From assembly GCF_000768315.1 (NCBI RefSeq), contig NZ_AQQX01000002.1:620001-684000 (forward strand): a stretch of 64,000 bases of DNA. The letters are read 5' to 3'. The translations under genes were made by a program, and so were the position numbers. This document shows, piece after piece, positions 1 to 29,346 of the stretch; within the stretch, counting starts at the first letter, position 1; every line of letters starts with the position of its first letter. The notes below the pieces were generated by a model that saw only the letters and a program-made list of their open reading frames with translations, ran no database searches and was not told the origin of the DNA. This stretch comes from Pseudooceanicola atlanticus (GTDB lineage Bacteria > Pseudomonadota > Alphaproteobacteria > Rhodobacterales > Rhodobacteraceae).

Positions 1-754
1 GGAGGAACGCGACCATTCCACCCGCGTGGCCCTGGCCCCCGGTGTGCCGGCGCAGTTTCACGATGAATTCGTGCGGCGCACGGGAATCCTGCTGCTTGAT
101 GCCTTCGGATCGACCGAGTCGAACAATGTCATCCAGACCGAGGCGGATATCCTGCGCCCCGGTATGATCGGGCGGATCACCAAGGGGTTCGATGCCCGCG
201 TGGTGGACGAATTCGACAACGAGGTGCCCGACGGGACTTCGGGCGAGTTGCTGTTGCGAGCAGACAAGCCAAACGCCTTTGCCCACGGCTATTTCGGGAT
301 GCCGGACAAGACCGTGGAGACCTGGCAGAACCTGTGGCTGCATACCGGCGACCGCGTGGTGCGCGATGGCGAGGGCTATTACCGGTTCGTCGACCGGATC
401 AAGGAAACCATCCGACGGCGGGGCGAGAACATCTCGTCCTACGAGGTCGAACAGGGCGTTCTGAGCCATCCTTCGGTTTCGACCGCCGCGGTCTTTCCCG
501 TGGCATCGGAACTGGCAGAAGACGAGGTCATGGTCGCCATCGTCCTGAAAGAAGGCGCGACGCTCGACCCCGAGGCGCTGATCCGCCATTGCGAAGACCG
601 TCTGCCCTATTACTCGATCCCCCGTTTCGTCGACATACGGACCGAACTGCCACGCACCGAGAACGGCAAGATCCAGAAGTTCAAACTGCGCGAGGAAGGT
701 GTCACCGACACCACCTGGGACCGCGAGGCCGCAGGGGTCACCCTGCGCCGCTGA
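1..754 (+). CDS. ATP-dependent acyl-CoA ligase, 3' part (gene starts before the window)
   Basis: C-terminal part of an AMP-forming acyl-CoA synthetase of the ANL superfamily. The frame is open from base 2, upstream of any start, so the gene begins outside the window. Visible are the GSTESNN segment of the adenylate-binding region, LHTGD (the Asp that contacts the ribose), a GENIS segment after the hinge, and the C-terminal GKIQKFKLR motif with the family's catalytic lysine. The style resembles carnitine/crotonobetaine-CoA ligase-type (CaiC-like) enzymes, but the acid substrate cannot be told from this part. Its place beside aromatic catabolism and acid transporters suggests it activates the imported or an intermediate carboxylate; that is inference. 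Confidence 0.9.
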   Translation, partial: EERDHSTRVALAPGVPAQFHDEFVRRTGILLLDAFGSTESNNVIQTEADILRPGMIGRITKGFDARVVDEFDNEVPDGTSGELLLRADKPNAFAHGYFGMPDKTVETWQNLWLHTGDRVVRDGEGYYRFVDRIKETIRRRGENISSYEVEQGVLSHPSVSTAAVFPVASELAEDEVMVAIVLKEGATLDPEALIRHCEDRLPYYSIPRFVDIRTELPRTENGKIQKFKLREEGVTDTTWDREAAGVTLRR

Positions 755-758
755 CGCC

Positions 759-802
759 GGATCGCGTCGCGATCCTATGCCCGGCGACCTATGGGCGCCG
801 GG
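759..802 (+). terminator. Two hairpins after the acyl-CoA ligase, possible terminator
   Basis: Two perfect inverted repeats lie in tandem after the ligase stop codon. The first is GGATCGCG-T-CGCGATCC (759-775). The second is CCCGGCG, a 9-base loop, then CGCCGGG (780-802). Neither is followed by a T run, so intrinsic termination is uncertain. They fit the gap that separates the ligase from the next promoter region. Confidence 0.35.
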
Positions 803-911
803 ATCAAAAGCTACACGTTCAAAACACTGAATCACCCTGAACGCCGCGCCATTACGCGCGAATCCCTTTATTCGTGCGAGTGTCACAGATTCTTCTTGCA
901 ATATTTATTTC

Positions 912-928
912 ATACTTAAAGGTATACA
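912..928 (+). promoter_or_regulatory. Imperfect AT-rich palindrome upstream of the GntR gene (possible operator)
   Basis: The stretch ATACTTAAAGGTATACA has dyad symmetry (ATAC...GTAT outer arms, and a GTATAC core at 922-927). It lies 17 bp before the ATG of the FCD-type GntR regulator. FCD regulators often bind GT...AC palindromes and regulate themselves, so this is a reasonable candidate. The match is only partial. Confidence 0.3.
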
Positions 929-944
929 GAGAAACCCAGCGTGG

Positions 945-1670
945 ATGCTCATGTACATTCCTTTGCGCAAGAAAACGGAACCGCTTGGCAACATGGTCTA
1001 CAAGGACCTGCTGGATGATCTTGTCATGCACAGGCGGTCGGCGGGCGACCGGCTGATCGAGGCCGAGATCGCAAGGGCCCTGGACGTGTCCCGCACCCCG
1101 GTCCGCGAAGCGTTGAGCCGCCTGGAAAAGGACGGGCTGATCGAAAGCGTCCGGCCGACCGGCTACGTCGTTGTGCATCCGTCGATGGAAGACGTCCGCG
1201 ACATCTTCGAAATTCGCCGCGCGCTGGAACCCGTCGCCTTTGCCACGGTCGTGGCGCAGGCCCGGGACGAGGACATGGCCCGCTTCAGGCGCCTGCACGG
1301 GGCGGTCATCGCTTCGACCACGCCGGAGGAATCGGCGCAGGCGAATCGTGCCTTCCGCGCCTTCTGGTTCGATCGCATCCGGAACGACCGGATGCGCGAG
1401 ACGCTGGTGCGCTTTCACCTTCAGGTGCACCTGGTCCGCGCCGCGACCCTGCATTCCGCAGAGGGGCGCAAGGCGGCCGGAGAGGGCACCGCGCGGCTGT
1501 TGGCCGCTTTCGAGAACCGAGACACCGACATGGCCCACGCGGCCATGCAGGATTTTGTGGATGCCGCCCTGTCGTTCTTCGAACAGGCCGATGCGGAACG
1601 CATTCTGCAAGCCCCTCCCGCGTCCGAAAGGACCGGGCAAGACCCGATGGCCAGCAACAAGGTCGGTTAG
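945..1670 (+). CDS. GntR family transcriptional regulator, FCD subfamily
   Basis: A 241-residue repressor-type regulator. Residues about 15-80 form a winged helix-turn-helix; RTPVREALSRLEKDGLIE (from about residue 50) is the highly conserved GntR recognition-helix region. Residues about 88-220 are the helical FCD effector domain, which usually binds an organic acid with a metal. Another possible start is Met17, just before VYKDLL. The gene sits 32 bp upstream of the TRAP transporter operon, so it most likely controls uptake and oxidation of that transporter's substrate. The family assignment is sure; the ligand is unknown. Confidence 0.92.
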   Translation: MLMYIPLRKKTEPLGNMVYKDLLDDLVMHRRSAGDRLIEAEIARALDVSRTPVREALSRLEKDGLIESVRPTGYVVVHPSMEDVRDIFEIRRALEPVAFATVVAQARDEDMARFRRLHGAVIASTTPEESAQANRAFRAFWFDRIRNDRMRETLVRFHLQVHLVRAATLHSAEGRKAAGEGTARLLAAFENRDTDMAHAAMQDFVDAALSFFEQADAERILQAPPASERTGQDPMASNKVG

Positions 1671-1702: not shown

Positions 1703-2695
1703 ATGAAGAATTACAGCTTTCTCAAAGGCGTCGCCGCCGCAGCCCTGATCGGGATTTCGGCGTCCGCTGCCTCGGCCCAGGAGATCATCCGCGCCGTCAC
1801 TTTCACCCCTGCCCAGGTGTCGTTTTCCAAGAACTTCATGAAGTTCGTGGACCTGGTGAACGAACGCGGTGAAGGCGTCGTCCAGATCCAGGTGATCGGC
1901 GGCCCCGAGGTCATCCCGAACGAACGCATGGGCGAAGCCCAGATGAACGGCATCGCGGACATGTTCCTTCTGCCCGCCGGTTTGTACCTGAACCTGGTGC
2001 CCGAGGGCGAAGCCTTTGCCGGCTCCAACCTGGACCCGATGACCACCCGTGAAAACGGCGGCCTGGAGCTGGTGAACAAGGCCTATCACGAGAAGGCCAA
2101 CACCCATATCCTGGCCCATGTCGATGGCGGCGCCGGGTTCCACCTTTGGACCACCGAACGCCCCGGCACCACCGAGGACGGCCAAGTCGACCTGTCGGGT
2201 CTGCGCCTGCGCACCTCGCCGCTTTACCGTGCATTCTTTGAGGAACTCGGCGCGACCATCGTGGTCCAGGCCGCGGGCGAGGTCTACACCTCTCTCGAGC
2301 GTGGCGTCGTCGACGGCACCGGCTACCCGATCTCGGGCATCCGCGACTTTGGCTGGGACAAGTTCATCAAGTACCGGATCGATCCGGGCTTCTTCCAGAC
2401 CGACGTTCTGATCTCCATCAACCTGGACACCTGGAACGGCCTTTCCGACGAAGCCAAGGAAATCGTCAACCAGGCCGCCATCGATCACGAGATCGCCTCC
2501 TACGAAGCCGAGAAAGAGCTGATCGAAACCGAAACCAAGGCCATGGCCGAAGGCGGGATCGAAACGATCACTTTGGAAGGCGAACAGGCCGACCTGTTCC
2601 TGACCAAGGCCTACGACATCGCATGGGCTCGCCTGAAAGAGCGTGACCCGACGATGCATGACGAACTGAAAGAGCTCTTCTTCGAAGACTTCTGA
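1703..2695 (+). CDS. TRAP transporter substrate-binding protein, DctP family
   Basis: A 330-residue periplasmic solute receptor for a Na+-driven TRAP importer. It begins with a Sec signal peptide ending ASAASAQ near residue 26. The mature part has the DctP fold, including the SGLRLRTSPLYRAF segment that carries the arginine which in this family usually clamps the substrate carboxylate, and GEVYTSLERGVVDG, the characteristic helix. The two permease genes follow after a strong hairpin. The ligand is probably a carboxylic acid, as the genes next to it encode acid-metabolising enzymes. Confidence 0.94.
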   Translation: MKNYSFLKGVAAAALIGISASAASAQEIIRAVTFTPAQVSFSKNFMKFVDLVNERGEGVVQIQVIGGPEVIPNERMGEAQMNGIADMFLLPAGLYLNLVPEGEAFAGSNLDPMTTRENGGLELVNKAYHEKANTHILAHVDGGAGFHLWTTERPGTTEDGQVDLSGLRLRTSPLYRAFFEELGATIVVQAAGEVYTSLERGVVDGTGYPISGIRDFGWDKFIKYRIDPGFFQTDVLISINLDTWNGLSDEAKEIVNQAAIDHEIASYEAEKELIETETKAMAEGGIETITLEGEQADLFLTKAYDIAWARLKERDPTMHDELKELFFEDF

Positions 2696-2703
2696 TCCGA
2701 GTT

Positions 2704-2732
2704 CCGGGCGGGCGCCGCATGGCCCCGCCCGG
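2704..2732 (+). terminator. Intercistronic hairpin between dctP-like and dctQ-like genes
   Basis: A perfect 9-bp stem, CCGGGCGGG / CCCGCCCGG with an 11-base loop, starts 8 bp after the binding-protein stop and is followed by TCCCCCTTT. Such hairpins often protect or partly terminate the transcript so that the binding protein is made in excess over the membrane subunits. The stem is seen directly; the effect is inferred. Confidence 0.55.
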
Positions 2733-2804
2733 TCCCCCTTTGATTTCACTCCGCCTGTTCCCTCCGGCGACCGCCTCTCACTTCCAGACGCGAAGGACCC
2801 CACG

Positions 2805-3317
2805 ATGCGCCCGATGCTCCAATTGATCGACCTGATATCGAAACTGCTGTTCGTGCTGGGCTGCCTGCTGGTCCTGGCGATCGTCTTTATCGTGAATTAC
2901 GACGTGCTGTCCCGGAACCTGGGCCTGCCGACCGCGATCTGGGCGGTGAACACGGTGGAATACGCGATGCTGCACCTGACCTTCCTGGTGCTGCCCTACC
3001 TCGTGATGACGCGCGGCCATGTCTTCGTCGGTATTCTGCTGACCTACATGCCCGAGCGGATGCGCAAGGGGTGGGAAACCGCGCTGCACATCATTTCGGC
3101 CGCGATCTGCTTCTACATGACCTGGTACAGCCTCGATTCCTTCCTGAAGGGTTGGGCCGACGGCAGCTACGAGGTGCGCGCCTACGACATGCCCATGTGG
3201 GGTGTCTATTCGACCATGCCTATCGGGTTCTTCTTTGGCGGGCTTCAGTTCCTCGCCTTCCTGCCCAAGGGCCAGAGCTTCTTCGATGCCAGCGCTGACG
3301 CGCATGCCGGCCTTTAA
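2805..3317 (+). CDS. TRAP transporter small permease subunit, DctQ family
   Basis: A 170-residue membrane protein with four predicted hydrophobic helices (first around residues 10-32, SKLLFVLGCLLVLAIVFIV; last near residues 133-152). This size and topology are typical of DctQ. It pairs with the large permease encoded 15 bp downstream and forms the membrane part of the importer whose receptor is encoded just upstream. Sequence is poorly conserved in this family, so identification relies on topology and gene order. Confidence 0.9.
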   Translation: MRPMLQLIDLISKLLFVLGCLLVLAIVFIVNYDVLSRNLGLPTAIWAVNTVEYAMLHLTFLVLPYLVMTRGHVFVGILLTYMPERMRKGWETALHIISAAICFYMTWYSLDSFLKGWADGSYEVRAYDMPMWGVYSTMPIGFFFGGLQFLAFLPKGQSFFDASADAHAGL

Positions 3318-3332
3318 GGAAAGAACACGACC

Positions 3333-4646
3333 ATGATGGACTGGACCCTTTCGATTGCAATTCTCATCGGCGGCCTGCTGCTGTCCATGGGGATCGGCCT
3401 GCCGGTGGCGCTCGGCTTTCTGGTGATCAACGTCATCGGCACCTATTTCTTCATGGGTGGCGAGCGCGGCATCACCCAGATGGTCGCCAACGCCACCATG
3501 GCCGTGTCGACCTATTCGCTGGCCCCGGTGCCGCTCTTCCTGGTGATGGGATCGCTGTTCTTCCATTCGGGCCTGGCCCGGCGGGTGCTGGACGCGATCG
3601 ACGTGCTGATCGGCCGCCTGCCGGCGCGCCTGTCCTACCTGACCGTGACCTCAGGCACCGTGTTCGCGGCGCTGTCGGGATCGTCGCTGGCCAATACCGG
3701 CATGCTGGGCACGCTGATGGTGCCCGAGATGGTCAAGCGCGGCTACAAGAAGCATATGGCGATCGGGCCGATCCTGGGCTCGGGCGGCCTTGCCGTGATC
3801 ATTCCGCCCTCCACCCTTGCGGTTCTCTTCGGCTCGCTCGCGCGAATCGACATCGGCGGGCTGCTGGTTGCCGGTCTCATCCCCGGCGTGATCCTGGCGA
3901 TCTTCTACGCGATCCTGATCTTCGTTCAGTCCAAGATCGATCCCGATGCCGCGCCGATGTACGATTACGTGCCCAAGCCCGTCAGCGAGCGGATCAAGAT
4001 TTTCTGCCGGGATATCCTGCCGATGGCGGCGATCATCTTTGCCGTGGTCGGGTCGATCCTGACCGGCGTGGCCACCCCGACCGAAAGCGGCGCGCTTGGC
4101 ATCCTCGCCGTTGCCGTGCTGGCGCTGATCTTCAAGGCGCTGGACTTCAAGGCGATCAGCACCGCGATCACCGATGCGGCCCGCGTGACCGGCATGACCT
4201 TCCTGCTGATCACCGCCTCGTCGACCTTTGCGCAGCTGCTGGCGTTTTCCGGCGCTTCGGCCGGGTTCGTCCGCTGGGCAACGTCACTGGAGATGGGGCC
4301 GACGCAGACCCTGCTGATCATGGCGCTGATCCTGCTGATCCTCGGCATGTTCATGGACCAGGTGTCGATGATGCTGATCACGCTGCCCATCTTCGTGCCG
4401 CTGGCCATGTCGCTGCAATTCGACATGATCTGGTGGGGCCTGATCATGCTGCTGATGCTGGAGGTCAGCTTTACCACCCCGCCTTTTGGCCTGCTGCTGT
4501 TCGTGATGCACGGTGTCAGTCCGAAAGGCACGACCCTGCAGGAAGTTGCGCGCGCGGCCTTGCCGTATATCGCCTGCGTCTTCCTGCTGGTTGCCCTGGT
4601 GATCGCCTTCCCGATCCTTGCGACGTTCATCCCGTCGCTGATGTAG
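3333..4646 (+). CDS. TRAP transporter large permease subunit, DctM family
   Basis: A 437-residue polytopic inner-membrane protein with about a dozen hydrophobic helices, the expected length for DctM. Typical family features are SGSSLANTGMLGTLMVPEM in the first half, the SGGLAVIIPPS-type hairpin, the TPTESGALG segment and GMFMDQVSMMLITLPIF in the second half; the polar stretches are thought to form the Na+ and substrate sites. It completes the TRAP operon (receptor, small permease, large permease). The oxidase gene follows after 58 bp. Confidence 0.95.
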   Translation: MMDWTLSIAILIGGLLLSMGIGLPVALGFLVINVIGTYFFMGGERGITQMVANATMAVSTYSLAPVPLFLVMGSLFFHSGLARRVLDAIDVLIGRLPARLSYLTVTSGTVFAALSGSSLANTGMLGTLMVPEMVKRGYKKHMAIGPILGSGGLAVIIPPSTLAVLFGSLARIDIGGLLVAGLIPGVILAIFYAILIFVQSKIDPDAAPMYDYVPKPVSERIKIFCRDILPMAAIIFAVVGSILTGVATPTESGALGILAVAVLALIFKALDFKAISTAITDAARVTGMTFLLITASSTFAQLLAFSGASAGFVRWATSLEMGPTQTLLIMALILLILGMFMDQVSMMLITLPIFVPLAMSLQFDMIWWGLIMLLMLEVSFTTPPFGLLLFVMHGVSPKGTTLQEVARAALPYIACVFLLVALVIAFPILATFIPSLM

Positions 4647-4704: not shown

Positions 4705-6105
4705 ATGAGCGGCTTCGTCGAAACACTGATTGACCGCTTCGGACCGTCCGTCGTGACGGCCGGGGCGGAAAGCCCCGAGAAGTACCACCATGACTGGGCC
4801 GGCCTGGCACCTGTCGTGCCGCTGGCCCTCGTTCGTCCCCGCACCACCGAGGAGGTGTCGGAGATCATGGCGGCCTGCCACTCCGAGGGTGTGCCGGTTG
4901 TGCCGCAGGGCGGGCTGACCGGGATTTCCGGCGGCGCGCATCCGGTGGCGCGCGGCATCGTCCTGAGCCTTGAGAAACTCGACCGGATCGAGGGTATCGA
5001 CACCGATGCCGGCACATTGATCGCGGGGGCCGGCGTTGTCCTGGAAACCGCGCAGGAGGCCGCGCGGGACAAGGGCCTGTTCCTGGGCATCGACATCGGA
5101 TCGCGCGGGTCCTGCCAGCTGGGCGGGGTGCTGGCCACCAATGCCGGCGGCAACACCGTGGTACGTTACGGCATGGCGCGGGATCACGTGCTGGGCCTCG
5201 AGGTTGTTTTGGCCGACGGCACCGTCATCGACGGCATGAACACCATGCTCAAGAACAATGCGGCACTGGACCTGAAACACCTGTTCATCGGGACCGAGGG
5301 GCTGCTGGGCATCATCACCCGCTGCGTGCTGCGGCTGCATCCGCTGCCGCCCGCCAAGGAAACCGCCTTTGTCGGCTGTGGCGGCACGTCCGAGGTGATC
5401 GGCCTTTTGCGGACGGCACGGGAAACGCTTGGTCCGATGCTGTCGAGTTTCGAGGTCATGTGGCCCAGCTTCTTCGACATCATGTCGGAGGGTACGGGGC
5501 TGGGATCGCCACTGGCAGGCAAGCACGGCGCCTATGTCATCATCGAGGCCACCGGGTTCGACAAGGAAGGCACCCGAACGGCCGTGGAGACATTGCTGGA
5601 GAAAGCGTTCGAGGATGGGCTGGTCGGCGATGGCGTCATCGCGAATTCGGTCAAGGAGGAACGCGCGCTCTGGGCCGTGCGGGAAAGCCCGGCGGAATAC
5701 GAAAGGGTGCTGGGCCCGGTGATCCCCTTCGACGTCGGGATCCCCATCGGCAAGATGGACGAGGCCGTGACACGGATCGAGGCCGAGGTTCATGCGCTGT
5801 TCCCCTCGGCGCGGACGCTATCCTACGGGCATATCGGGGATTCCAACCTGCATGTCGTGATCAACGTGCCCGAGGCCGGACAGAACCAGCCCGAGAAAGA
5901 GATCAAGGCCTGCGTCTACGGCATCACCCGCGACCTGGGCGGCACGGTTTCGGCGGAACATGGCATCGGCGCGATAAAGCGCGATTACCTGGGCTATTCC
6001 CGCAGCGCCGATGAGATCGCGGTGATGCGCGGCATCAAGCAGGTGATGGACCCCAAGGGCATCCTGAACCCCGGAAAGAGCTTTGACGAAGGGCAGGCTG
6101 CATGA
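4705..6105 (+). CDS. FAD-linked oxidase (GlcD / D-2-hydroxyacid dehydrogenase type)
   Basis: A 466-residue flavoprotein. An N-terminal PCMH/FAD_binding_4 domain (about residues 38-215) contains PQGGLTGISGGA and GSRGSCQLGGVLATNAGGN, which bind the FAD pyrophosphate. A C-terminal FAD-oxidase domain carries YGHIGDSNLH and SAEHGIGAIKRDYL, the conserved histidines of the glycolate oxidase / D-lactate / D-2-hydroxyglutarate dehydrogenase group. It probably oxidises a 2-hydroxy acid to the 2-oxo acid, passing electrons to a flavoprotein or quinone. It follows the TRAP genes and overlaps the aldolase gene by 4 bp, so oxidation and aldol cleavage are probably consecutive steps. The exact substrate is unknown. 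Confidence 0.9.
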   Translation: MSGFVETLIDRFGPSVVTAGAESPEKYHHDWAGLAPVVPLALVRPRTTEEVSEIMAACHSEGVPVVPQGGLTGISGGAHPVARGIVLSLEKLDRIEGIDTDAGTLIAGAGVVLETAQEAARDKGLFLGIDIGSRGSCQLGGVLATNAGGNTVVRYGMARDHVLGLEVVLADGTVIDGMNTMLKNNAALDLKHLFIGTEGLLGIITRCVLRLHPLPPAKETAFVGCGGTSEVIGLLRTARETLGPMLSSFEVMWPSFFDIMSEGTGLGSPLAGKHGAYVIIEATGFDKEGTRTAVETLLEKAFEDGLVGDGVIANSVKEERALWAVRESPAEYERVLGPVIPFDVGIPIGKMDEAVTRIEAEVHALFPSARTLSYGHIGDSNLHVVINVPEAGQNQPEKEIKACVYGITRDLGGTVSAEHGIGAIKRDYLGYSRSADEIAVMRGIKQVMDPKGILNPGKSFDEGQAA

Positions 6106-6854
6106 CCTCGCTTCGCCGCAAGGTGCAGGAACGGGCGCCCCTGCGTGGCCCATTCCTGTCGATCCCGTCGGCCATGACCGCCGAGATCGTCGCCGGGGCC
6201 GGACCGGATTTCCTGTGCATCGACACCGAACACAGCCCGATCAGCGATGCGGTAATGACGGACATGATCCGCGCCGCCGACGTGGCTGGCCTGCCCGCGT
6301 TGGTGCGGGTGCGCGGGCTGTCGGGGCAGAATATCGCCGCCGCGCTGGATGCCGGGGCCTGCGGGGTCCTGGTGCCGCATGTCTCGACTGCCGAAGAGGC
6401 GCGCGCCGTCGTGCGCTATGCGCGTTTCCCGCCCGAAGGGTGCCGCGGCGCCGGACCGGGGCGCGCGGCCGGTTACCTGCGGGACATTCCGGGCTACATC
6501 GCCCGCGCCCGCCAGGACACACTCGTGATGGTCCAGATCGAGACCATGACCGCCATCGAAAACCTGGCAGAGATCATCGCCGTGCCTGGCATCGACCTGA
6601 TCCTCGTCGGCCCGGGCGACCTGGGTGTCGACCTGGCCGCCCGCGGATCGGACAAGAGCGTGGACGAGGTCATTCCCGGCATTCTCGACACTGCCCGGGC
6701 GGCGGATATGCCGGTTGGCATCTTCTCGCCCGACCGCGACAGCTCGGCCCGGTGGCTGGAGCAGCTGTCCTTCGTCATCGAAGGATCGGACGCGATGTAC
6801 CTGTCTCTGGCGACAGATGCCGCCTTTGCACCGCTCAAGACCGGAAAGACCTGA
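6102..6854 (+). CDS. HpcH/HpaI family aldolase
   Basis: A 250-residue class II (metal-dependent) pyruvate-type aldolase with the usual TIM-barrel length. Visible are FLCIDTEHSPIS, LVRVRG, GVLVPHVSTAEEA, the metal-ligand Glu in MVQIETMTAIEN and Asp in LVGPGDLGVDL. The family cleaves 4-hydroxy-2-oxo acids to pyruvate (or a relative) plus an aldehyde. The ATG overlaps the stop of the oxidase gene (ATGA), which indicates translational coupling. The oxidase could supply its 2-oxo acid substrate. Function at family level is secure; the true substrate is not. Confidence 0.9.
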   Translation: MTSLRRKVQERAPLRGPFLSIPSAMTAEIVAGAGPDFLCIDTEHSPISDAVMTDMIRAADVAGLPALVRVRGLSGQNIAAALDAGACGVLVPHVSTAEEARAVVRYARFPPEGCRGAGPGRAAGYLRDIPGYIARARQDTLVMVQIETMTAIENLAEIIAVPGIDLILVGPGDLGVDLAARGSDKSVDEVIPGILDTARAADMPVGIFSPDRDSSARWLEQLSFVIEGSDAMYLSLATDAAFAPLKTGKT

Positions 6855-7712: not shown

Positions 7713-7743
7713 AAAAGTACATGCATTTGCATATCTTACTTTT
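7713..7743. promoter_or_regulatory. Nested palindrome upstream of the cyclase gene (candidate operator B)
   Basis: Outer arms AAAAGTA (7713-7719) and TACTTTT (7737-7743) enclose a perfect inner palindrome ATGCA-TT-TGCAT (7721-7732). It ends 34 bp before the cyclase ATG, a usual place for repressor binding. The outer arms repeat the half-site seen at 7469-7486. A MarR gene is encoded two genes downstream, which makes it a plausible binder; this is inference. Confidence 0.4.
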
Positions 7744-7777: not shown

Positions 7778-8572
7778 ATGACCGCCAAGGATACCCTGGC
7801 TCAGCTGGCAGGCGCACTGCTCGACGGATCGATCAAGATCGTCGATTGCACGGCCCCGCTCGGCCCCAAGACACCGCTGTTGAAGCTGCCGGACGAAATC
7901 GCCGACCAGACCCCGCCGATCGAGATTCATCCGATCTCGAAATACGGTGACCGTGGTCCGTTCTGGGCGTGGAACTGGCTGAAGCTCGGTGAACATTCCG
8001 GCACCCATTACGACGCGCCGCATCACTGGATCACCGGCAAGGATTACCCGGACGGATCGGTGGACACGATCAATCCGCAGTACTTCATGGCGCCCGCGAA
8101 CGTCATCGACTGTTCCGCCGAAAGCGCTGCGGATCCGGACTTCCTTCTGACCGTGGATCACGTGAAGGCCTGGGAGGCCGAGCACGGCGAGATCAAGGAA
8201 GGTGAGTGGGTGCTGATGCGCACCGACTGGGACCAGTACAACACCGACGAGGACAAGTTCCTGAACGCGGACGAGAATGGCCCCCACACCCCCGGGCCGA
8301 CCGCAGAGGTCATCCAGTACCTGATGGAAGACCGCAAGGCGCTTGGCTGGGGGTCGCAGTGCATCGGTACCGATGCGGGCGCCGCCGGTGGGTTCGAAAT
8401 CCCCTTCCCCGCGCACAACCTGCTGCACAAGCACAACCGCTACGGCCTGGCCTCGCTGACCAACCTCAAGGAGCTTCCGGCCAAGGGCGCGATCCTGGTG
8501 ACCGCACCGCTGAAGATCGTCGAAGGCACCGGGTCCCCGATCCGCGCCATCGCCATGGTTCCGGCGGCCTGA
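7778..8572 (+). CDS. Cyclase-family metal-dependent hydrolase (isatin hydrolase / kynurenine formamidase-like)
   Basis: A 264-residue protein of the cyclase (PF04199) family. The signature HSGTHYDAPHHW places His73, His77, Asp79 and His83 in the order expected for the Mn/Zn ligands; another conserved His-rich helix occurs near FPAHNLLHKHN. Family members hydrolyse cyclic or formyl amides: kynurenine formamidase acts on N-formylkynurenine and isatin hydrolase opens isatin to isatinate. I begin at the ATG at 7778, preceded by GAGGGAGA; a longer open frame upstream lacks such a site. The neighbours (IorAB-like enzyme, aminobenzoyl-CoA-type hydroxylase) favour an indole or anthranilate substrate, but the sequence alone does not settle it. 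Confidence 0.85.
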   Translation: MTAKDTLAQLAGALLDGSIKIVDCTAPLGPKTPLLKLPDEIADQTPPIEIHPISKYGDRGPFWAWNWLKLGEHSGTHYDAPHHWITGKDYPDGSVDTINPQYFMAPANVIDCSAESAADPDFLLTVDHVKAWEAEHGEIKEGEWVLMRTDWDQYNTDEDKFLNADENGPHTPGPTAEVIQYLMEDRKALGWGSQCIGTDAGAAGGFEIPFPAHNLLHKHNRYGLASLTNLKELPAKGAILVTAPLKIVEGTGSPIRAIAMVPAA

Positions 8573-10141: not shown

Positions 10142-10584
10142 TCGACCGGCCCGAAGAGCTTGAGGAATTCACGCCCTACCTGATGAACCGGATCATGGCC
10201 CGGTACAACAAGGGTGTGGAATCCTCTCTCAAGGAGGTTGGCGTGACCGTCGCGCAGATGCGTGCGCTGGCCGTCCTTGCCGAAGGCGGGCCCTGCACGA
10301 TCAATGAATTGTCGGTTCTGACCGTCATCAAGCAATCCACGCTGTCGCGCACACTGGACGGAATGGAAAAGGCCGGCCTGATCCTGCGATCCGCGCAGGA
10401 AGGCGACAACCGCTACCGGATGATCAGCCTGACCGACGAGGGCGAAACCGCCTACCGGGCGGCCTGGCCTGCCATGCTGGCGATGCAGGACACGATGCTG
10501 AAGCCACTGGACCAGACCGAACGCCACACCCTGAACGCCATCCTGCTGCGGGTGCTCTACGACATCCGCCACCACGATTTCTGA
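10138..10584 (+). CDS. MarR family transcriptional regulator
   Basis: A 148-residue winged-helix regulator. The ATG overlaps the stop of the preceding oxidoreductase gene (ATGA). INELSVLTVIKQSTLSRTLDGMEKAGLI is the helix-turn-helix (residues about 55-85), and the following DNRYRMISLTDEG is the wing. MarR proteins typically repress aromatic catabolic operons and release DNA on binding the aromatic acid or its CoA thioester. Being inside the operon suggests local autoregulation, possibly at the palindromes before the cyclase gene. Confidence 0.9.
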   Translation: MIDRPEELEEFTPYLMNRIMARYNKGVESSLKEVGVTVAQMRALAVLAEGGPCTINELSVLTVIKQSTLSRTLDGMEKAGLILRSAQEGDNRYRMISLTDEGETAYRAAWPAMLAMQDTMLKPLDQTERHTLNAILLRVLYDIRHHDF

Positions 10585-18121: not shown

Positions 18122-18142
18122 TCTGACGATCCAAGACCATAA

Positions 18143-18166: not shown

Positions 18167-18184
18167 ATTATTTTCCGAGGTCCC

Positions 18185-20926: not shown

Positions 20927-21735
20927 CCGCAACACCGTTCTTTTCCGTTCGCAACCTGCACCTGTCCTTTGCCGACCGGGCGCACAAGCCGCTATTCGGT
21001 CCTGCGCCACGGATCGAGGTCCTGAAGGGCCTCGACCTCGATATCGGCGAGGGGCGGATCACCGGCATCGTCGGGGAATCCGGGTCGGGCAAGTCGACGC
21101 TTGGCCGGGTGCTGGTGCGTCTGCTCGACCCCGATAGCGGCAACGTCATGTTCAAGGGTCAGGACATCGCAGGACTTGACGAAGAGGCGCTGCGCCCGTT
21201 GCGTCGCGACCTGCAGATGATCTTCCAGGATCCGATGTCGTCGCTGAACCCGCGCCACAAGGTCTGGCGTATCATCGCGCAGCCGATGAAACGCTACGGT
21301 CTGGGCGGGACCCGCGAACAGGCGACCGAGGCGCTGGTCCGTGTCGGCCTGCCGGCCGAGTTCGGCGACCGCTTTCCGCATCAATTGTCCGGCGGTCAAC
21401 GCCAGCGCGTCGGGATCGCTAGGGCCATTGCAGTCGGTCCCAGCTTTATCCTGGCGGACGAGATCGTGTCGGGCCTGGACGTGTCCAGCCAGGCACATGT
21501 GCTGATGCTGCTAAGCAAGCTCGCGAAGGAGATGGGCCTGACCGTCGCCTTCATCAGCCATGACCTGTCAGTGATCCGTCATCTCTGCGACGACGTGATC
21601 GTGCTGGACCACGGCGTGATCGTCGACAACGGCCCGGTCGAGCAGGTCTTCGACGATCCGCAATCCGACGTTACCCGCAAATTGCTGGCGGCGATCCCGT
21701 TGCCGGAAATGGACGATACCTGGTTCGAGCGCTGA
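20923..21735 (+). CDS. ABC transporter ATP-binding protein, DppF/OppF type
   Basis: A 270-residue ATPase with Walker [10 protein letters not shown], signature [15 protein letters not shown] and Walker [13 protein letters not shown]; the Ile-Val in place of Pro-Thr after the Walker B Glu is a common OppF variant. It is the last gene of the importer operon. Its stop codon directly abuts the stop of the convergent flavin reductase gene, with no room for an intergenic terminator. Confidence 0.93.
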
Positions 21736-22254
21736 TCAGGCGCTCGCCCTCAGGCCGTGGAATCGTGACCGGGCATAGACCAGCGACTGACGTTCGGGGG
21801 CGAGACAGACCTCGACGATGCGGCCGATAAAGACGGAATGACTGCCCACGGTGTTCTGTCCGTCCACCACGCAGGAGATCGAGGCCAGGGCCGAGGTCAG
21901 CCGGGGCTGGCCGCCACGGCATTCGATCCAATCGCCCTCAAGGAACTTGTCGGCCCCGACCACGCCGGTCGCCCCGGCAAAGCGCAGGGCGAGGTCCTGA
22001 TCCTCGTCGGACAGGAGCTGCACGCTGAACCGCCCGTTTTCCGCAATCGCGTCGCAGGTTCCGCTGGAGGTATTCACGCAGACCATGAGGCTGGGCGGGC
22101 TGTCGGTGAGCGAGCAGACCGCCGTGGCGGTCAGACCACGGCGATCACCGCCAGCGCCGGTGGTGATCAGTGTGACCGCACCGGCAAACAGCCCCATGGT
22201 GCTGCGGAATTCATCCTTCGAGATCATGTCGGGCAGGTCGGTTGGCGTGGTCAT
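21736..22254 (-). CDS. Flavin reductase of a two-component monooxygenase (HpaC-like)
   Basis: A 172-residue FMN/FAD reductase. MGLFAGAVTLITTGAGGDRRGLTATAVCSLTDSPPSLMVCVN (in part) is the flavin-binding signature of the HpaC/HsaB/NtaB group, and GSHSVFIGRIV is the typical C-terminal strand. It lies 1 bp after the LysR gene and downstream of the monooxygenase at 23,194-24,396 on the same strand. It most likely reduces free flavin with NAD(P)H for that oxygenase. Confidence 0.92.
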   Translation of the reverse strand: MTTPTDLPDMISKDEFRSTMGLFAGAVTLITTGAGGDRRGLTATAVCSLTDSPPSLMVCVNTSSGTCDAIAENGRFSVQLLSDEDQDLALRFAGATGVVGADKFLEGDWIECRGGQPRLTSALASISCVVDGQNTVGSHSVFIGRIVEVCLAPERQSLVYARSRFHGLRASA

Positions 22255-22255
22255 G

Positions 22256-23193: not shown

Positions 23194-24396
23194 TCAGGGA
23201 TAGCCGCGCGGCGGTTCCAGCCCGGCCAGAACGCGTCCGGCCGATTCCATCGTCATGTCGGTCACGGCGGCATGCTGGGTCACCACCATCGCGTCGCGCA
23301 TGTGGCGCTGCATCTCGCTTTTCTTGCTAATGACGCCCATGCCGGAAATCCGGTAGGCCTTCTGGACGATGGCCGCACCCTTGTGCGCCGCATTGGTCGC
23401 GCTGATGCGCAGCAGGTTGGTCTGGTCCAGTGACACCGGATCACCCTTGAGCAGGCTGTCCCAGGCCTCTTCCGCCGCCTCGTAGAAGAACGCACGGGCC
23501 GAGCGCAGATCGGCCTCGCATTCGGCCAGGCCGGACAGGAAGTAACCTCGGTCGCACAGGCGCGAGTGGCCTACCATGATCTTGGCCGCGCCGGACACGG
23601 ATTTGGCATATTCGATGGCCGCCCGCGCCAGGCCAAGATTGCAGGCAGCGTGGACCTGCGCCTGGTAGGCCAGCGCCGGATATTTATAGAGCGGTTCGTC
23701 GATCACGCCGGGCGCGCCGCGCTCGCAGATCCACATGTCGGAATAGAACTTGTCGGTGACCTTTGTGTCGTGGCTGCCTGTGCCCTGCATGCCCGAGACG
23801 TCCCAGGTTTCGATGATCTCGACCTCGTCTGCCGGGGCGACGGCCATCATCACGGTCGGCACGTCATCGGGGCCTGCGCCTTCGGCATGTCCCGCGATGC
23901 CGACGCCGATCCAGTCCGCACCCATGCAGCCGGAGGCGAATTTCCACTGGCCGGTGACGTTCCAGCCGCCATCGACGCGCGTTGCCTCCTGCACCGGGTG
24001 CAGACCGCCGGCGAAGACCTGGTCAGGGCCGTTCGCATACATGATTTCCTGCGCTTCGACCGGCAGAGCGGCGGTATAGGTGTTGGCAGACCCGAAGGCC
24101 GACACCCAGGCGGCAGAGCCGTCGACGGTGCCGATCTTGTCGACCATCTTGAGGAAATGATGCGGGGCCATCGCATCGCCACCGAACATCGTCGGCGTGG
24201 CGGAACGGAAGATTCGCGCCTTCTTCATCAGGTCTATGACGTCGCGCGGAATGTGGCGGATGGTTTCGAACTGGTCGCGGCGGGCCTTGATCTCGGCCAG
24301 GAGGGTTTCGAATTCAGGGGTTTCCGTCAGTTTGGAGAAATCGACGGTCTCTGCCGCTTCGGCGCTTTTCAGCGGTGTCTTCTCTGCGATGGTCAT
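23194..24396 (-). CDS. Acyl-CoA dehydrogenase-fold flavin monooxygenase (group D, two-component)
   Basis: A 400-residue protein of the acyl-CoA dehydrogenase fold. GTVDGSAAWVSAFGSANTY, WNVTGQWKFASGCMGADW and GSHDTKVTD are hallmarks of the flavin-dependent hydroxylases related to HsaA, HpaB-like enzymes, dibenzothiophene DszC and indole-3-acetate IacA/indole IndA. Such enzymes take reduced flavin from a separate reductase; an HpaC-like reductase is encoded two genes downstream. The catalytic Glu of true acyl-CoA dehydrogenases is not evident. In this neighbourhood, hydroxylation of an indole or phenolic ring is plausible; the substrate is not provable from sequence. Confidence 0.87.
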   Translation of the reverse strand: MTIAEKTPLKSAEAAETVDFSKLTETPEFETLLAEIKARRDQFETIRHIPRDVIDLMKKARIFRSATPTMFGGDAMAPHHFLKMVDKIGTVDGSAAWVSAFGSANTYTAALPVEAQEIMYANGPDQVFAGGLHPVQEATRVDGGWNVTGQWKFASGCMGADWIGVGIAGHAEGAGPDDVPTVMMAVAPADEVEIIETWDVSGMQGTGSHDTKVTDKFYSDMWICERGAPGVIDEPLYKYPALAYQAQVHAACNLGLARAAIEYAKSVSGAAKIMVGHSRLCDRGYFLSGLAECEADLRSARAFFYEAAEEAWDSLLKGDPVSLDQTNLLRISATNAAHKGAAIVQKAYRISGMGVISKKSEMQRHMRDAMVVTQHAAVTDMTMESAGRVLAGLEPPRGYP

Positions 24397-24750: not shown

Positions 24751-24772
24751 TACTTTATACTTGAAATACTTT
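24751..24772. promoter_or_regulatory. TACTT triple repeat before the salicylyl-CoA hydroxylase-type gene
   Basis: The sequence reads TACTTTATACTTGAAATACTTT and holds three copies of TACTT spaced 7 and 9 bases apart. It lies about 45 bp upstream of the ATG at 24,817. The same half-site occurs at 7,469-7,486 and 7,713-7,743. It could be a regulator site or simply part of an AT-rich promoter. Confidence 0.3.
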
Positions 24773-24816: not shown

Positions 24817-27098
<2,282 letters not shown>

Positions 27099-27102
<4 letters not shown>

Positions 27103-27842
27103 GCCTCGCCGGTAAAACGGCATTCGTCACGGGTGGCGGCTCCGGCGTCGGGGCCGCCATCGCGTCTGCGCTGGCCGCCGAAGGCGCCAGCGTGACGATC
27201 TGCGGGCGCAGGCAAGCCCCGCTGGACGACATGGCCGCCAGGCATCCTGGCATCACCGGCACGGTCTGCGACATTACCGACGAAGCCGCCATTTCGGACG
27301 CAATCGCCAAGGCCACCCCGGATATCGTGATCGCCAATGCCGGCGCATCGGAAAGCGCGCCGTTCACCCGGACCGAGCTGGCCGCATTCCAGCGCATGGT
27401 CGACGTGAACCTGACCGGCACCTTTCTGACCCTGCGCGAGGGCGCGAAGGCGATGAAGGACAAGCCTTGGGGCCGTCTGATCGCCATCGCCTCGACCGCC
27501 GGGCTGAAGGGCTATCCCTATGTCGCGCCCTATGCCGCCGCAAAGCATGGCGTCGTGGGCATGGTGAAATCCGTCGCGCTGGAACTGGTGCGCAAGGGGA
27601 TCACCGCCAATGCCGTCTGCCCCGGTTTCCTGGATACCGAAATGACGGAACAATCGATCACAAACATCGTCGAAAAGACCGGCCGCACCCGGGAAGAAGC
27701 CCGCGCCTCGCTGGAAGCGACCAACCCGATGCACCGGCTCGTTCCGCCCGAAGACGTCGCTCAGGCCGTTCTATGGCTGTGCGGGCCGGGCAGCGACATG
27801 GTCACCGGCCAATGCATTTCCGTGTCTGGAGGCGAAACATGA
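27099..27842 (+). CDS. Short-chain dehydrogenase/reductase
   Basis: A 247-residue classical SDR. The cofactor motif TGGGSGVG is at residues 11-18, the NAG at 80-82, and the catalytic residues are Ser132, Tyr145 and Lys149 (YAAAK). GRRQ after the second strand suggests NADP(H). It overlaps the hydroxylase gene and the thioesterase gene by 4 bp each. It probably oxidises or reduces the alicyclic or hydroxyacyl-CoA product of the upstream enzyme. Confidence 0.9.
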
Positions 27843-28288
27843 CCGAGCGGTTCGTCCTCAGCCGCCAGATCGAGTTCAACCATTGCGACCCGGCCGGCAT
27901 GGTTTTCTACCCGCGCTATTTCGAAATGATCTCGGCCACGGTGGAACGTTTTCTCGCCGACGAGATCGATTATGGCTGGACCACGATGGGCGCGAGTACC
28001 GGCGGCTTCGGCACCCCTATGGGGCAGATCGACGTCCGGTTTTCCAATCCGTCCTACCTGGGTGAGTGGCTGGATTTCAGCCTGGTGATCAAACGGCTTG
28101 GCCGCGCGTCGGCCACGTTCGAGATAACCTGTAGTGGCGATGGCAAGACACGGTTTGTCTGCAACGCCACGATCGTGCATGCGGAAACCGGTGGCGGCAA
28201 GTCGCAGCCCTGGCCGGATGCCGCGCGTACCCGTATGACCCGTTTCCTTGATGCATCAGAAGACCCCGAGATGAGGACACCCGCATGA
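27839..28288 (+). CDS. Acyl-CoA thioesterase, 4-hydroxybenzoyl-CoA thioesterase-like hotdog fold
   Basis: A 149-residue hotdog protein. NHCDPAGMVFYPRYFEM holds the catalytic Asp17 of the 4-hydroxybenzoyl-CoA/YbgC-type thioesterases, followed by the long hotdog helix. It is in a four-gene overlapping operon and would release CoA from an aromatic or ring-modified acyl-CoA, either a main pathway step or a safety valve that frees trapped CoA. The start at 27,839 is fixed by the ATGA overlap. Confidence 0.9.
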   Translation: MTERFVLSRQIEFNHCDPAGMVFYPRYFEMISATVERFLADEIDYGWTTMGASTGGFGTPMGQIDVRFSNPSYLGEWLDFSLVIKRLGRASATFEITCSGDGKTRFVCNATIVHAETGGGKSQPWPDAARTRMTRFLDASEDPEMRTPA

Positions 28289-28698
28289 CCGCCCTGACCC
28301 CCCATACTTTCCTGCAACCGGACGGCTGGGTGCCCGCAAAGGGCTATGCCAATGGGATCCTGGCAGAGGGCCGCATGGTGTTCACCGGCGGGCTTGTCGG
28401 CTGGAACGAAAACCAGGAATGGATCGAGACGGATATGGTCGGGCAGTTCCGCCAGACCCTGAAGAACATCGTCGCCGTCCTGGCCGAGGCGGGTGCCAAG
28501 CCCGAACACCTTGTGCGGCTGACCTGGTACATCACTGACAAGGCCGAGTATAACAACAACCTCAAGGCCTTCGGCGCCGCCTATCGCGAGGTTATCGGCC
28601 GCCACTTCCCCGCCATGGCCGTCGTGCAGGTCGTCGCCCTGATGGAAGACGAGGCCCGGGTCGAGATCGAGGCCACCGCGGTCGTCCCCGAGGCATGA
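28285..28698 (+). CDS. RidA family protein (enamine/imine deaminase)
   Basis: A 137-residue member of the YjgF/YER057c/UK114 family. VFTGGLVGWNENQEW and QTLKNIVAVLAEAGAKPEHLVRLTWYITD (in part) are typical; the conserved Arg is in the EARVEIEATAVV strand. Family members hydrolyse reactive enamines/imines to ketones with release of ammonia, or act as aminomuconate/aminoacrylate deaminase-like enzymes. Coupling by ATGA to a putative 2-aminobenzoyl-CoA pathway suggests it removes the former anthranilate nitrogen from the dearomatised ring; this is inference. Confidence 0.9.
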   Translation: MTALTPHTFLQPDGWVPAKGYANGILAEGRMVFTGGLVGWNENQEWIETDMVGQFRQTLKNIVAVLAEAGAKPEHLVRLTWYITDKAEYNNNLKAFGAAYREVIGRHFPAMAVVQVVALMEDEARVEIEATAVVPEA

Positions 28699-28705
28699 TC
28701 CCAGG

Positions 28706-28724
28706 CGCTCCCCTAGCGGGAGCG
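28706..28724 (+). terminator. Stem-loop after ridA-like gene
   Basis: A perfect 7-bp stem CGCTCCC / GGGAGCG with a five-base loop begins 7 bp after the RidA stop. It lacks a T run but sits at the end of a tight operon and before a separately promoted MarR gene. Confidence 0.45.
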
Positions 28725-28848
28725 TCGCAAGAACGCCACGTCGACAAGGCCGTGTGGCCCTGACAGGGGGCCGCGCGGCCTTTACTCATCGGTTCGAATG
28801 GTTGATACCCGAAATAACGCATCTTAAAATTGTGAGAGGTCGCGGTCC

Positions 28849-29346
28849 ATGGAAGACACGGCACCGAATTTTCAGCACTCCGACCGGATCGCGGTCGACC
28901 GGCTTCGTCTGTGGCTGCAGATGCTGAAGGCCGTTCGTCATGTCGAGGGCGTGCTGAGAGAGCGGCTTCGTTCGGGCTATGACACGACCCTGCCGCGCTT
29001 CGACGTGCTGGCCGCGCTGCATGCCCAGCCCGAAGGCATGAAGATGAGCGAACTGTCCCAGCACCTGATCGTGTCCAATGGCAATGTCACCGGCGTGGTC
29101 GACCGACTGGTCGCCGATGGCCTCGCCGAACGGCAGAGCCTGGCCACCGACCGCCGCGCCATCGTCGTCCGCATCACCGAAACCGGCCGCGCCCTGATGG
29201 ATGACATGGCCGCCGCACACATGACCTGGATCAACGATATGTTCGGCAGCGTGTCCGAGGCCGACGCGGCCCGCGGCATGTCGATCATGCTGGATATCCG
29301 TCACGGCACCCAGACAAGCGACGAGAAGCAATCCGCCACGGGCTGA
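28849..29346 (+). CDS. MarR family transcriptional regulator
   Basis: A 165-residue winged-helix regulator. ETTL-free core: MKMSELSQHLIVSNGNVTGVVDRLVADGLAERQ (in part) is the helix-turn-helix (residues about 63-95), followed by the wing DRRAIVVRITETG. It lies 150 bp after the RidA gene with its own AT-rich upstream region. MarR proteins of this kind often control aminobenzoate or hydroxycinnamate CoA pathways, with the CoA thioester as inducer. It is distinct from the MarR encoded at 10,138. Confidence 0.9.
   Translation: MEDTAPNFQHSDRIAVDRLRLWLQMLKAVRHVEGVLRERLRSGYDTTLPRFDVLAALHAQPEGMKMSELSQHLIVSNGNVTGVVDRLVADGLAERQSLATDRRAIVVRITETGRALMDDMAAAHMTWINDMFGSVSEADAARGMSIMLDIRHGTQTSDEKQSATG

What the first reader, a model, noticed from the sequence alone, without database searches (positions are those of the whole stretch)
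1..29346. Possible catabolic supercluster for an indolic or N-aromatic compound ending in CoA-bound aminobenzoate chemistry
Seen together on about 29 kb: an IorAB-like 2-oxoacid oxidoreductase, an isatin hydrolase/kynurenine formamidase-type cyclase, a two-component flavin monooxygenase of the group that includes indole-acting IacA/IndA, a fused monooxygenase/OYE enzyme of the 2-aminobenzoyl-CoA type, RidA, a thioesterase and acyl-CoA ligase, two importers and four regulators (GntR, LysR, two MarR). Established knowledge of these families allows a chain: indole acid, hydroxylated indole, isatin, isatinate, anthranilate, 2-aminobenzoyl-CoA, dearomatised ring. I did not find a gene for every step, and the order of steps is inference.
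Basis: partly seen in the sequence, partly recalled or inferred. Interest (0 to 1): 0.72.

Follow-up and report, generated by a model that had tools for sequence, protein, structure and literature searches.

The report
Isatin-to-aminobenzoyl-CoA catabolic supercluster
A marine-type bacterium carries a run of genes that probably breaks down indole-like compounds through isatin, and gene neighbourhoods in relatives suggest a shortcut in which opened isatin is attached to coenzyme A directly instead of passing through free anthranilate.

Summary
In detail: every named gene is present, and the unit starts about 5 kb upstream of the window. The cyclase at 7,778-8,572 is an isatin hydrolase (4j0n, E 1.6e-123); a second cyclase upstream matches isatin hydrolase A. 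The fused enzyme passes its family's curated cut-off.

The conserved core is isatin hydrolase-MarR-IorA-IorB. In 341 genomes of the order, this IorA and the isatin hydrolase family co-occur (49 of 52 against 1 of 289), and 51 of 52 IorA genomes carry the fused enzyme (86 of 289 others do).

Best explanation: IorAB oxidatively decarboxylates isatinate, a 2-oxo acid, straight to 2-aminobenzoyl-CoA. The only 3 of 137 genomes with the fused enzyme but no dedicated CoA ligase all have the linked cluster. Against it: 8 of 22 relative loci with the fused enzyme do hold such a ligase.

IorA/IorB mark the known iad auxin locus, but no iadE was found here, so this is a variant. The step is inferred; the imported substrate is uncertain.

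The parts
2..754 (+). C-terminal part of an ATP-dependent acyl-CoA ligase (gene begins upstream at C12:619060)
   Evidence: NF004808 PRK06155 420 bits on the fragment; AMP-binding_C
945..1670 (+). GntR/FCD regulator
   Evidence: Pfam GntR and FCD
1703..4646 (+). TRAP transporter DctP-DctQ-DctM
   Evidence: Pfam DctQ, DctM; DctP by position and by a 75% match to the annotated solute receptor gene of pLA6_001
4705..6105 (+). GlcD-like FAD oxidase (2-hydroxy acid type)
   Evidence: TIGR00387 252 bits, below cut-off 567.9; Pfam FAD_binding_4 and FAD-oxidase_C
6102..6854 (+). HpcH/HpaI-type aldolase
   Evidence: Pfam HpcH_HpaI 106.4 bits
6857..7453 (+). flavin-reductase-like ORF; assignment by eye only
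   Evidence: no NCBIfam match at 1e-20, Pfam not asked; 55% match beside an HsaA-like gene in Rhizobium rhizoryzae
7719..7734 (.). operator-like palindrome ACATGCATTTGCATAT upstream of isatin hydrolase
   Evidence: only place in the window with up to 4 mismatches to ATATGCATTTGCATAT, both strands; at the same place in relatives
7778..8572 (+). isatin hydrolase (B type)
   Evidence: PDB 4j0n isatin hydrolase B E=1.6e-123
8576..10141 (+). phytoene-desaturase-like FAD oxidoreductase 1
   Evidence: TIGR02734 123 bits, below cut-off 238; 4dgk E 1e-11
10138..10584 (+). MarR regulator 1
   Evidence: Pfam MarR_2; PDB 3cjn E 3.5e-28, 7kym E 1.6e-21
10630..11229 (+). VOC (glyoxalase-fold) protein
   Evidence: Pfam Glyoxalase_4
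11267..13411 (+). IorA: TPP and Fe-S subunit of a 2-oxoacid oxidoreductase, proposed isatinate-specific
   Evidence: TIGR03336 294.8 bits, below cut-off 650.9; G481-D482-G483, N511 and seven cysteines invariant in 12 aligned sequences
13424..14974 (+). IorB: POR gamma domain plus DUF6537
   Evidence: NF006179 669 bits, cut-off 348; Pfam POR, DUF6537
14964..16523 (+). phytoene-desaturase-like FAD oxidoreductase 2
   Evidence: TIGR02734 129.5 bits, below cut-off
16586..21735 (+). Opp-type ABC importer, five genes
   Evidence: SBP_bac_5, BPD_transp_1, ABC_tran
21736..22254 (-). flavin reductase
   Evidence: Pfam Flavin_Reduct 127 bits
22256..23170 (-). LysR regulator
   Evidence: Pfam LysR_substrate, HTH_1
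23194..24396 (-). HsaA-like two-component flavin monooxygenase; optional member
   Evidence: NF045629 146 bits, below cut-off 450; PDB 7f70 E 2e-47
24752..24767 (.). operator-like inverted repeat ACTTTATACTTGAAAT upstream of the fused enzyme
   Evidence: alignment of 11 upstream regions, two of them the same genome; found once on the plus strand of the window with a strict pattern
24817..27102 (+). fused FAD monooxygenase/OYE enzyme, 2-aminobenzoyl-CoA monooxygenase/reductase type (ACMR)
   Evidence: NF006101 1213.8 bits, cut-off 1078; Pfam Oxidored_FMN and FAD_binding_3
27099..27842 (+). SDR dehydrogenase
   Evidence: Pfam adh_short
27839..28288 (+). thioesterase (4HBT-like)
   Evidence: Pfam 4HBT_2
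28285..28698 (+). RidA-family enamine/imine deaminase
   Evidence: Pfam Ribonuc_L-PSP
28849..29346 (+). MarR regulator 2
   Evidence: Pfam MarR_2; PDB 3boq E 3.6e-19

Best explanation
The window holds a catabolic locus whose core turns isatin into 2-aminobenzoyl-CoA. Isatin hydrolase opens isatin to isatinate (2-aminophenylglyoxylate), which is a 2-oxo acid. IorAB, a specialised 2-oxoacid oxidoreductase, then removes CO2 oxidatively and attaches CoA, giving 2-aminobenzoyl-CoA without free anthranilate and without ATP. The fused monooxygenase/reductase dearomatises this thioester; RidA and the SDR process the resulting enamine and keto groups, and the thioesterase rescues CoA. MarR1 is placed to control the isatin hydrolase-IorAB-Opp operon and MarR2 the ACMR operon, each with its own operator-like repeat. 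Upstream modules feed isatin: just outside the window, ligase plus thiolase/OB-fold proteins resembling iadFGH, which would release acetyl-CoA; inside it, TRAP-GlcD-HpaI, which would oxidise a 2-hydroxy side chain and release pyruvate by retro-aldol cleavage of a dioxindolyl-pyruvate. Shown: gene identities, conserved order, co-occurrence. Inferred: the IorAB reaction, the side-chain chemistry, the roles of RidA, SDR and thioesterase, the regulators' targets and the imported substrate.
For: Both cyclases match solved isatin hydrolases. In 341 genomes of the order, IorA (>=64% identity, 52 genomes) co-occurs with the isatin hydrolase family in 49 of 52, against 1 of 289; starts lie within 10 kb in 40 of 52 and within 30 kb in 46 of 52. 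Full-length ACMR is in 51 of 52 IorA genomes and 86 of 289 others, and within 30 kb of IorA in 16 of 51. A minimal operon isatin hydrolase-MarR-IorA-IorB is annotated in Paracoccus sp. SMMA_5_TC and appears in the labelled maps of G155 and G042. In 20 hand-picked ACMR loci of IorA-free genomes a dedicated ligase is labelled at 70% or more in 17, including the two whose ACMR falls in the window's own clade (G158, G168). The five order-sample genomes with that ACMR clade beside IorAB (G000, G303, G223, G084, G157) have no such ligase in the cluster: it is on another contig in G000 and G223 and absent in the other three. These three are the only ones of 137 ACMR genomes without it; their best other ligases are 31-33% identical. 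Out of sample, Pacificibacter marinus (L081) also lacks it at E 1e-60. Azospirillum thermophilum has IorAB-iadCDEF-SDR-ACMR-SDR-ECH-ACAD-thioesterase-RidA in one run without that ligase. The genome has a separate canonical fused indolepyruvate oxidoreductase (1474 bits, C34). Four loci of a more distant IorA clade (49-53%) show no isatin hydrolase label in the 20 kb fetched.
Against: No enzyme was assayed. In Variovorax the nine genes iadC-K2, without iadA/iadB, restored anthranilate formation from IAA (preprint PMC12633357, passages), so isatinate can reach anthranilate another way. A ligase of the dedicated type (55% or more) lies within the fetched flanks in 9 of 80 IorA loci, among them 8 of the 22 that also hold ACMR (L085, L109 and six Rhizobium-type loci; my count), and in Alloyangia pacifica. 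The window's own genome keeps it with ECH and ACAD on C44, and 8 of 9 further genomes searched carry one, one of them only 54% alike. So a free-anthranilate route remains possible in most. The window's other acyl-CoA ligase (2-754) has no known substrate. Fisher test of ligase absence against IorA presence gives only P = 0.05 (3 genomes), and the genomes are related. 3 of 52 IorA genomes have no isatin hydrolase hit (G089, G184, G289), and one (G184) no full ACMR. Ruegeria pomeroyi's IorAB has no cyclase within 16 kb. G084, G157, G303 and G223 also lack the usual ring-opening enoyl-CoA hydratase above its cut-off, so how their ring is opened is open. IorA is below the IOR_alpha equivalog cut-off.
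Confidence: 0.55

Rival explanations
1. Isatinate is first decarboxylated to free anthranilate, as in the published iad scheme, and a CoA ligase then makes 2-aminobenzoyl-CoA; IorAB has another role.
For: Anthranilate is the reported end product of iad loci (PMC9613470 passages), and iadC-K2 without iadAB suffices for it. 134 of 137 ACMR genomes carry the ligase, including this one on C44; 8 of 22 relative loci with ACMR hold it near IorAB.
Against: IorAB is the conserved partner of isatin hydrolase. Three order-sample genomes plus Pacificibacter marinus have the cluster without the ligase. No decarboxylase is annotated in the minimal operon.
Confidence: 0.3
2. IorAB acts at the top, on indolepyruvate or a related arylpyruvate, giving an indoleacetyl-CoA-type compound that is then oxidised to isatin.
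For: The family name; NF006179 match of IorB; a 2-hydroxy acid oxidase (GlcD-like) in the same locus.
Against: Minimal operons contain only isatin hydrolase, MarR and IorAB. GlcD was found at 50% or more in 1 of 80 loci. A canonical fused IOR exists elsewhere in the genome. IorA scores less than half the IOR_alpha cut-off.
Confidence: 0.15
3. This is an ordinary iad auxin-degradation locus that has lost its oxygenase, the rest being unrelated neighbours.
For: iorA/iorB are stated to be exclusive markers of iad loci (PMC9613470); thiolase, OB-fold/SDR and cyclase like those beside IorAB in G117 lie just upstream.
Against: The isatin hydrolase-PDS-MarR-IorAB-PDS-Opp unit recurs in many genera, mostly without iadD/E in the flanks (iadD/E in 5 of 80, isatin hydrolase in 57 of 80), so it is a module of its own. 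pLA6_001 keeps most of the window set.
Confidence: 0.2

Closest known systems
iad locus for indole-3-acetate degradation (Variovorax, Bradyrhizobium, Achromobacter)
   Same: IorA/IorB markers; MarR genes; isatin as intermediate; ligase, thiolase, SDR and isatin-hydrolase-like genes (here within about 5 kb upstream of the window).
   Different: No Rieske beta subunit (iadE) was detected in the genome; two FAD desaturase-like genes, an Opp importer, TRAP-GlcD-HpaI and an ACMR cluster are present; the proposed end is 2-aminobenzoyl-CoA, not anthranilate.
Isatin hydrolases A and B of Labrenzia aggregata and Ralstonia
   Same: Both types are present: B in the window, A upstream; the HxxxHxDAPxHH stretch is the same as in 4j0n in the printed alignment.
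   Different: Those are single enzymes. The paper searched for context (PMC6117287) had no hit for 'operon' or 'gene cluster'.
2-aminobenzoyl-CoA monooxygenase/reductase cluster (Azoarcus evansii; recalled from general knowledge)
   Same: Fused FAD monooxygenase/OYE enzyme, SDR, thioesterase, RidA.
   Different: No dedicated CoA ligase, enoyl-CoA hydratase or acyl-CoA dehydrogenase in this cluster; those three lie together on C44 without ACMR.
Anaerobic iaa pathway of Aromatoleum, and phenylglyoxylate oxidoreductase (both recalled; iaa is named in PMC9613470)
   Same: iaa also ends at 2-aminobenzoyl-CoA; phenylglyoxylate oxidoreductase does the same kind of chemistry on an unsubstituted arylglyoxylate.
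   Different: As recalled, iaa does not use isatin hydrolase plus IorAB, and the enzymes are of other families; not compared here.

Membership tests
iad auxin-degradation locus | iorA/iorB (iadA/iadB) marker genes | tested here: met
   IorA and IorB at 11267-14974. The same IorA type sits near iadCDE-like genes in Bradyrhizobium loci L135, L140, L154. Marker status from PMC9613470. The Variovorax CL14 IadA itself was not compared.
iad auxin-degradation locus | Rieske oxygenase iadD/iadE | tested here: not met
   PF00866 not found in the genome at E 0.001. The one PF00848 protein lies on C20 away from the locus and was not typed further.
iad auxin-degradation locus | iadF, G, H, I-like ligase, thiolase, dehydrogenase, cyclase | tested here: inconclusive
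   Homologues of the G117 thiolase, OB-fold/SDR and cyclase at 50-62% lie upstream; the ligase is only 32% like the one in G117. Not compared with the Variovorax proteins.
iad auxin-degradation locus | IAA-binding MarR (IadR) | tested here: inconclusive
   Closest solved MarRs 3cjn and 7kym. 7kym belongs to the set of PMC9613470; that it is the Bradyrhizobium protein is by elimination. Ligand binding is not testable here.
isatin hydrolase | sequence relation to characterised enzymes and metal-binding stretch | tested here: met
   4j0n E 1.6e-123 with the HxxxHxDAPxHH stretch the same; second cyclase against 5nnb E 3.9e-106.
isatin hydrolase | Mn-dependent hydrolysis of isatin | not testable with these tools
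   needs an enzyme assay
2-aminobenzoyl-CoA monooxygenase/reductase type (NF006101) | score above the curated cut-off, both domains | tested here: met
   1213.8 bits against 1078; Oxidored_FMN and FAD_binding_3. The NCBIfam name says salicylyl-CoA; that the fused form acts on aminobenzoyl-CoA is recalled, substrate not tested.
indolepyruvate ferredoxin oxidoreductase (TIGR03336 equivalog) | score above the equivalog cut-off | tested here: not met
   294.8 bits against 650.9
HsaA equivalog (NF045629) | score above the cut-off | tested here: not met
   146.2 against 450 bits
IacA indole-acetate monooxygenase | close relation to IacA | not tested
   no IacA sequence was available

The most novel reading that the evidence does not exclude
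The IorA/IorB pair that marks iad and isatin loci is an isatinate:acceptor oxidoreductase (CoA-acylating, decarboxylating), an activity that I found assigned nowhere in my searches. It would join isatin hydrolase to the aminobenzoyl-CoA pathway, bypass free anthranilate, and serve as a common sink into which several entry modules (iadCDE for auxin, indole monooxygenase, GlcD/HpaI for indolic hydroxy acids) plug.
Probability: 0.5. Interest if true: 0.75.

Novelty: new variant of a known kind. Interest (0 to 1): 0.6.

Why it matters
Bacterial breakdown of auxin and indole affects plant growth and marine signalling. The published iad scheme leaves the marker genes iadA/iadB without a role in the passages read. 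A direct step from isatinate to 2-aminobenzoyl-CoA would give them one, save an ATP-dependent activation, fit the presence of the fused ring enzyme in 51 of 52 IorA genomes, and predict that some marine bacteria grow on isatin but not on anthranilate.

Tried and rejected
The ORF 24811-27123 on the minus strand was scanned first and had no family match; the real gene is on the plus strand. PDB comparison of IorA found nothing at 0.01. No paper held all four of indole-3-acetic acid, Roseobacter, catabolism and isatin. A shared operator for both operons was looked for and not seen: the two repeats differ. A strict pattern for the second repeat hit only the window among eight sequences; only the given strand was scanned and the pattern misses variants visible in the alignment, so this says little. 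The idea that the HsaA-like enzyme is a conserved part was dropped as a general claim (0 of 80 at 40% or more) but kept as optional (pLA6_001). Structure prediction was not used, since it would not decide substrate specificity.

Choices that shape the counts: IorA genomes are those at 64% identity or more (52 of the 56 genomes hit; the 4 genomes with only 51-54% hits went to the negative side). ACMR counts 131 genomes over the cut-off plus 6 full-length ones at 995-1026 bits, added by hand. The isatin hydrolase family at E 1e-60 pools A and B types. Ligase presence rests on the four best first-look candidates of each genome; all candidates were scored only in the six genomes. The 80 contig loci are the best 80 of 590, so they lean to close relatives, and 65 of them have full flanks. 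The 20 IorA-free ACMR loci were picked by hand. The ACMR tree took only hits of at least 45% identity and 90% coverage from loci I had fetched; clusters such as L079, L083, L085 and L109, and linked genomes not fetched, are missing from it. Labels in the maps come from one best-hit pass with my own reference proteins; iadC, iadD and iadF references were named from their place in G117 and agree with the annotation in Azospirillum thermophilum.

Full report
What is there. The window is C12:620001-684000 of a 4.94 Mb genome of 47 contigs. An Rfam hit to a Ruegeria cis2 sRNA at 48691-48843 and the kin found point to the Rhodobacterales, but no name was given. All genes of the finding are present. 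The unit is cut by the window start: L006 carries AraC, a thiolase, a protein fusing an OB-fold (ChsH2-like) domain to an SDR, a second cyclase, an EthD-like gene and the start of the acyl-CoA ligase. From 29.5 to 35 kb the few ORFs scanned look unrelated; the rest of the window was not scanned for families.

The cyclases. The window cyclase is an isatin hydrolase by sequence: 4j0n (isatin hydrolase B) at E 1.6e-123, with the metal-binding stretch the same in the printed alignment. The upstream cyclase matches isatin hydrolase A (5nnb, E 3.9e-106).

The conserved core. This IorA (at least 64% identity) is in 52 of 341 genomes of the order. Of these, 49 have an isatin hydrolase family member, against 1 of 289 without IorA; starts lie within 10 kb in 40 of 52 and within 30 kb in 46 of 52. 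Among the best 80 of 590 loci from GTDB contigs, isatin hydrolase (58% or more) is within the fetched flanks in 57 of 80, and an isatin hydrolase label lies within four labelled genes of IorA in 56 of 80. The smallest form is isatin hydrolase-MarR-IorA-IorB, annotated in Paracoccus sp. SMMA_5_TC and seen in the labelled maps of G155 and G042. Four loci of a more distant IorA clade (49-53%) show no isatin hydrolase label in 20 kb. Genomes are related, so the P values overstate independence.

The link to the CoA pathway. A full-length ACMR is in 137 of 341 genomes: 51 of 52 with IorA and 86 of 289 without. It lies within 30 kb of IorA in 16 of 51. On a tree of 43 ACMR proteins the label 'beside IorAB' needs 8 changes, at least 5 of them forced by well-supported branches, so the linkage was gained or lost several times; one row (L099) is a long branch. 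In 20 hand-picked ACMR loci of IorA-free genomes the usual order is ACMR-SDR-MarR-ECH-ACAD-ligase, with that ligase labelled at 70% or more in 17 of 20.

The natural experiment. That ligase is in 135 of 341 genomes and in 134 of the 137 ACMR genomes. The three without it (G084, G157, G303) all have ACMR-SDR-thioesterase-RidA-MarR2 next to isatin hydrolase-MarR1-IorAB; their best other ligase matches are 31-33% identical. Within the same ACMR clade, two IorA-free genomes (G158, G168) keep the ligase in the ACMR locus. Among ACMR genomes generally the contrast is weak (P 0.05), but it is what a ligase-free source of the thioester predicts. Outside the sample, 1 of 9 searched genomes, Pacificibacter marinus (same genus as G157, which by contig L082 is P. 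maritimus), lacks it; 8 of 9 have it, one only 54% alike. Against the reading, a ligase of this type lies in the flanks of 9 of 80 IorA loci, including 8 of the 22 that also hold ACMR: two Alloyangia loci, where it sits beyond the Opp genes, and six Rhizobium-type loci. The window's genome has it on C44 with ECH, ACAD and a MarR2-like gene but no ACMR, so here both routes could run. Azospirillum thermophilum has IorAB, iadCDEF-like genes, an SDR, ACMR, SDR, ECH, ACAD, thioesterase and RidA in one run without that ligase.

Proposed mechanism. Isatinate is a 2-oxo acid attached to an aminobenzene ring. Oxidative decarboxylation with CoA, the chemistry of the 2-oxoacid oxidoreductase family (general knowledge), would turn it into 2-aminobenzoyl-CoA, the substrate recalled for the fused enzyme. 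IorA keeps a GDG motif, N511 and seven cysteines invariant across 12 aligned sequences. A separate canonical fused indolepyruvate oxidoreductase sits on C34, so this pair is free to be special. No assay was done; this step is inference.

Entry modules. Different loci join different front ends to the same core: iadCDE-like Rieske genes (PF00866 at E 0.001 in 28 of 52 IorA genomes, not in this one; beside IorAB with ligase, thiolase, OB-fold/SDR and cyclase in G117, with iadC and iadD named by position); an SDR, a styrene/indole monooxygenase and a flavin reductase in Alloyangia pacifica; two desaturase-like FAD enzymes with an Opp importer (PDS1 in 45 of 80 and OppA in 44 of 80 at 50% or more); TRAP (DctM at 44% or more in 9 of 80, my count). 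GlcD (50% or more) and HpaI (40% or more) are rare (1 and 2 of 80) but are both kept, with TRAP, GntR, LysR and the HsaA-like gene, on plasmid pLA6_001. By chemistry, an HpaI aldolase could cleave dioxindolyl-pyruvate to isatin and pyruvate, and the thiolase/OB-fold pair could cleave dioxindolyl-acetyl-CoA to isatin and acetyl-CoA; both are inference. What this organism eats is therefore uncertain: an indolic acid is the best guess.

Regulation. Upstream of isatin hydrolase a palindrome (ATATGCATTTGCATAT, one mismatch in the window) is conserved at the same place in 12 aligned rows including the window, some of them the same genome twice and G225 degenerate; it occurs once in the window at up to 4 mismatches and not in L006. 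A different repeat precedes ACMR. So the two halves are probably two regulons side by side, one per MarR; which MarR binds which repeat is inference.

Literature. Passages, not whole papers, were seen. [quoted passage not shown] PMC12633357, a preprint: iadC-K2 suffices for anthranilate; no hit for iadA or iadB. Passages also of PMC11630574, PMC10374108, PMC6117287 and PMC8383072. Searches for an isatinate-using oxidoreductase or for the role of iadAB listed nothing that, by title, abstract start or the passages seen, assigns it; supplements and most subscription papers could not be read.

Verdict. It is a variant of the iad/isatin kind with an untested but specific new enzyme step.

Noticed in passing
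L159 (C44:80000-99999): A second cluster with ligase, acyl-CoA dehydrogenase, enoyl-CoA hydratase and a MarR2-like gene but without ACMR or its SDR, as if the ring enzyme had been taken over by the window cluster.
   Followed up: partly
L183 (plasmid pLA6_001) and L184 (Alloyangia pacifica plasmid): Most of the supercluster sits on plasmids in other marine bacteria, so it may move between strains as a unit.
   Followed up: partly
L187, 17998-27466: A Variovorax boronicumulans plasmid has IorAB of a related clade (IorA 56%) with an alpha-hydroxy acid oxidase and an importer; this could be the same chemistry on mandelate-like acids.
   Followed up: no
L186, 16001-21203: Ruegeria pomeroyi megaplasmid: IorA-IorB-thioesterase-MarR-MarR without a nearby cyclase.
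   Followed up: no
window 48691-48843 (-): Rfam Ruegeria cis2 sRNA, 115.6 bits.
   Followed up: no
L006 2372-3784 (-): Another GlcD-like FAD oxidase next to a gamma-glutamyltranspeptidase gene, about 16 kb upstream of the window.
   Followed up: no
window 8576-10141 and 14964-16523: Two desaturase-like FAD enzymes travel with the Opp importer and isatin hydrolase in many genera; their substrate is unknown.
   Followed up: partly
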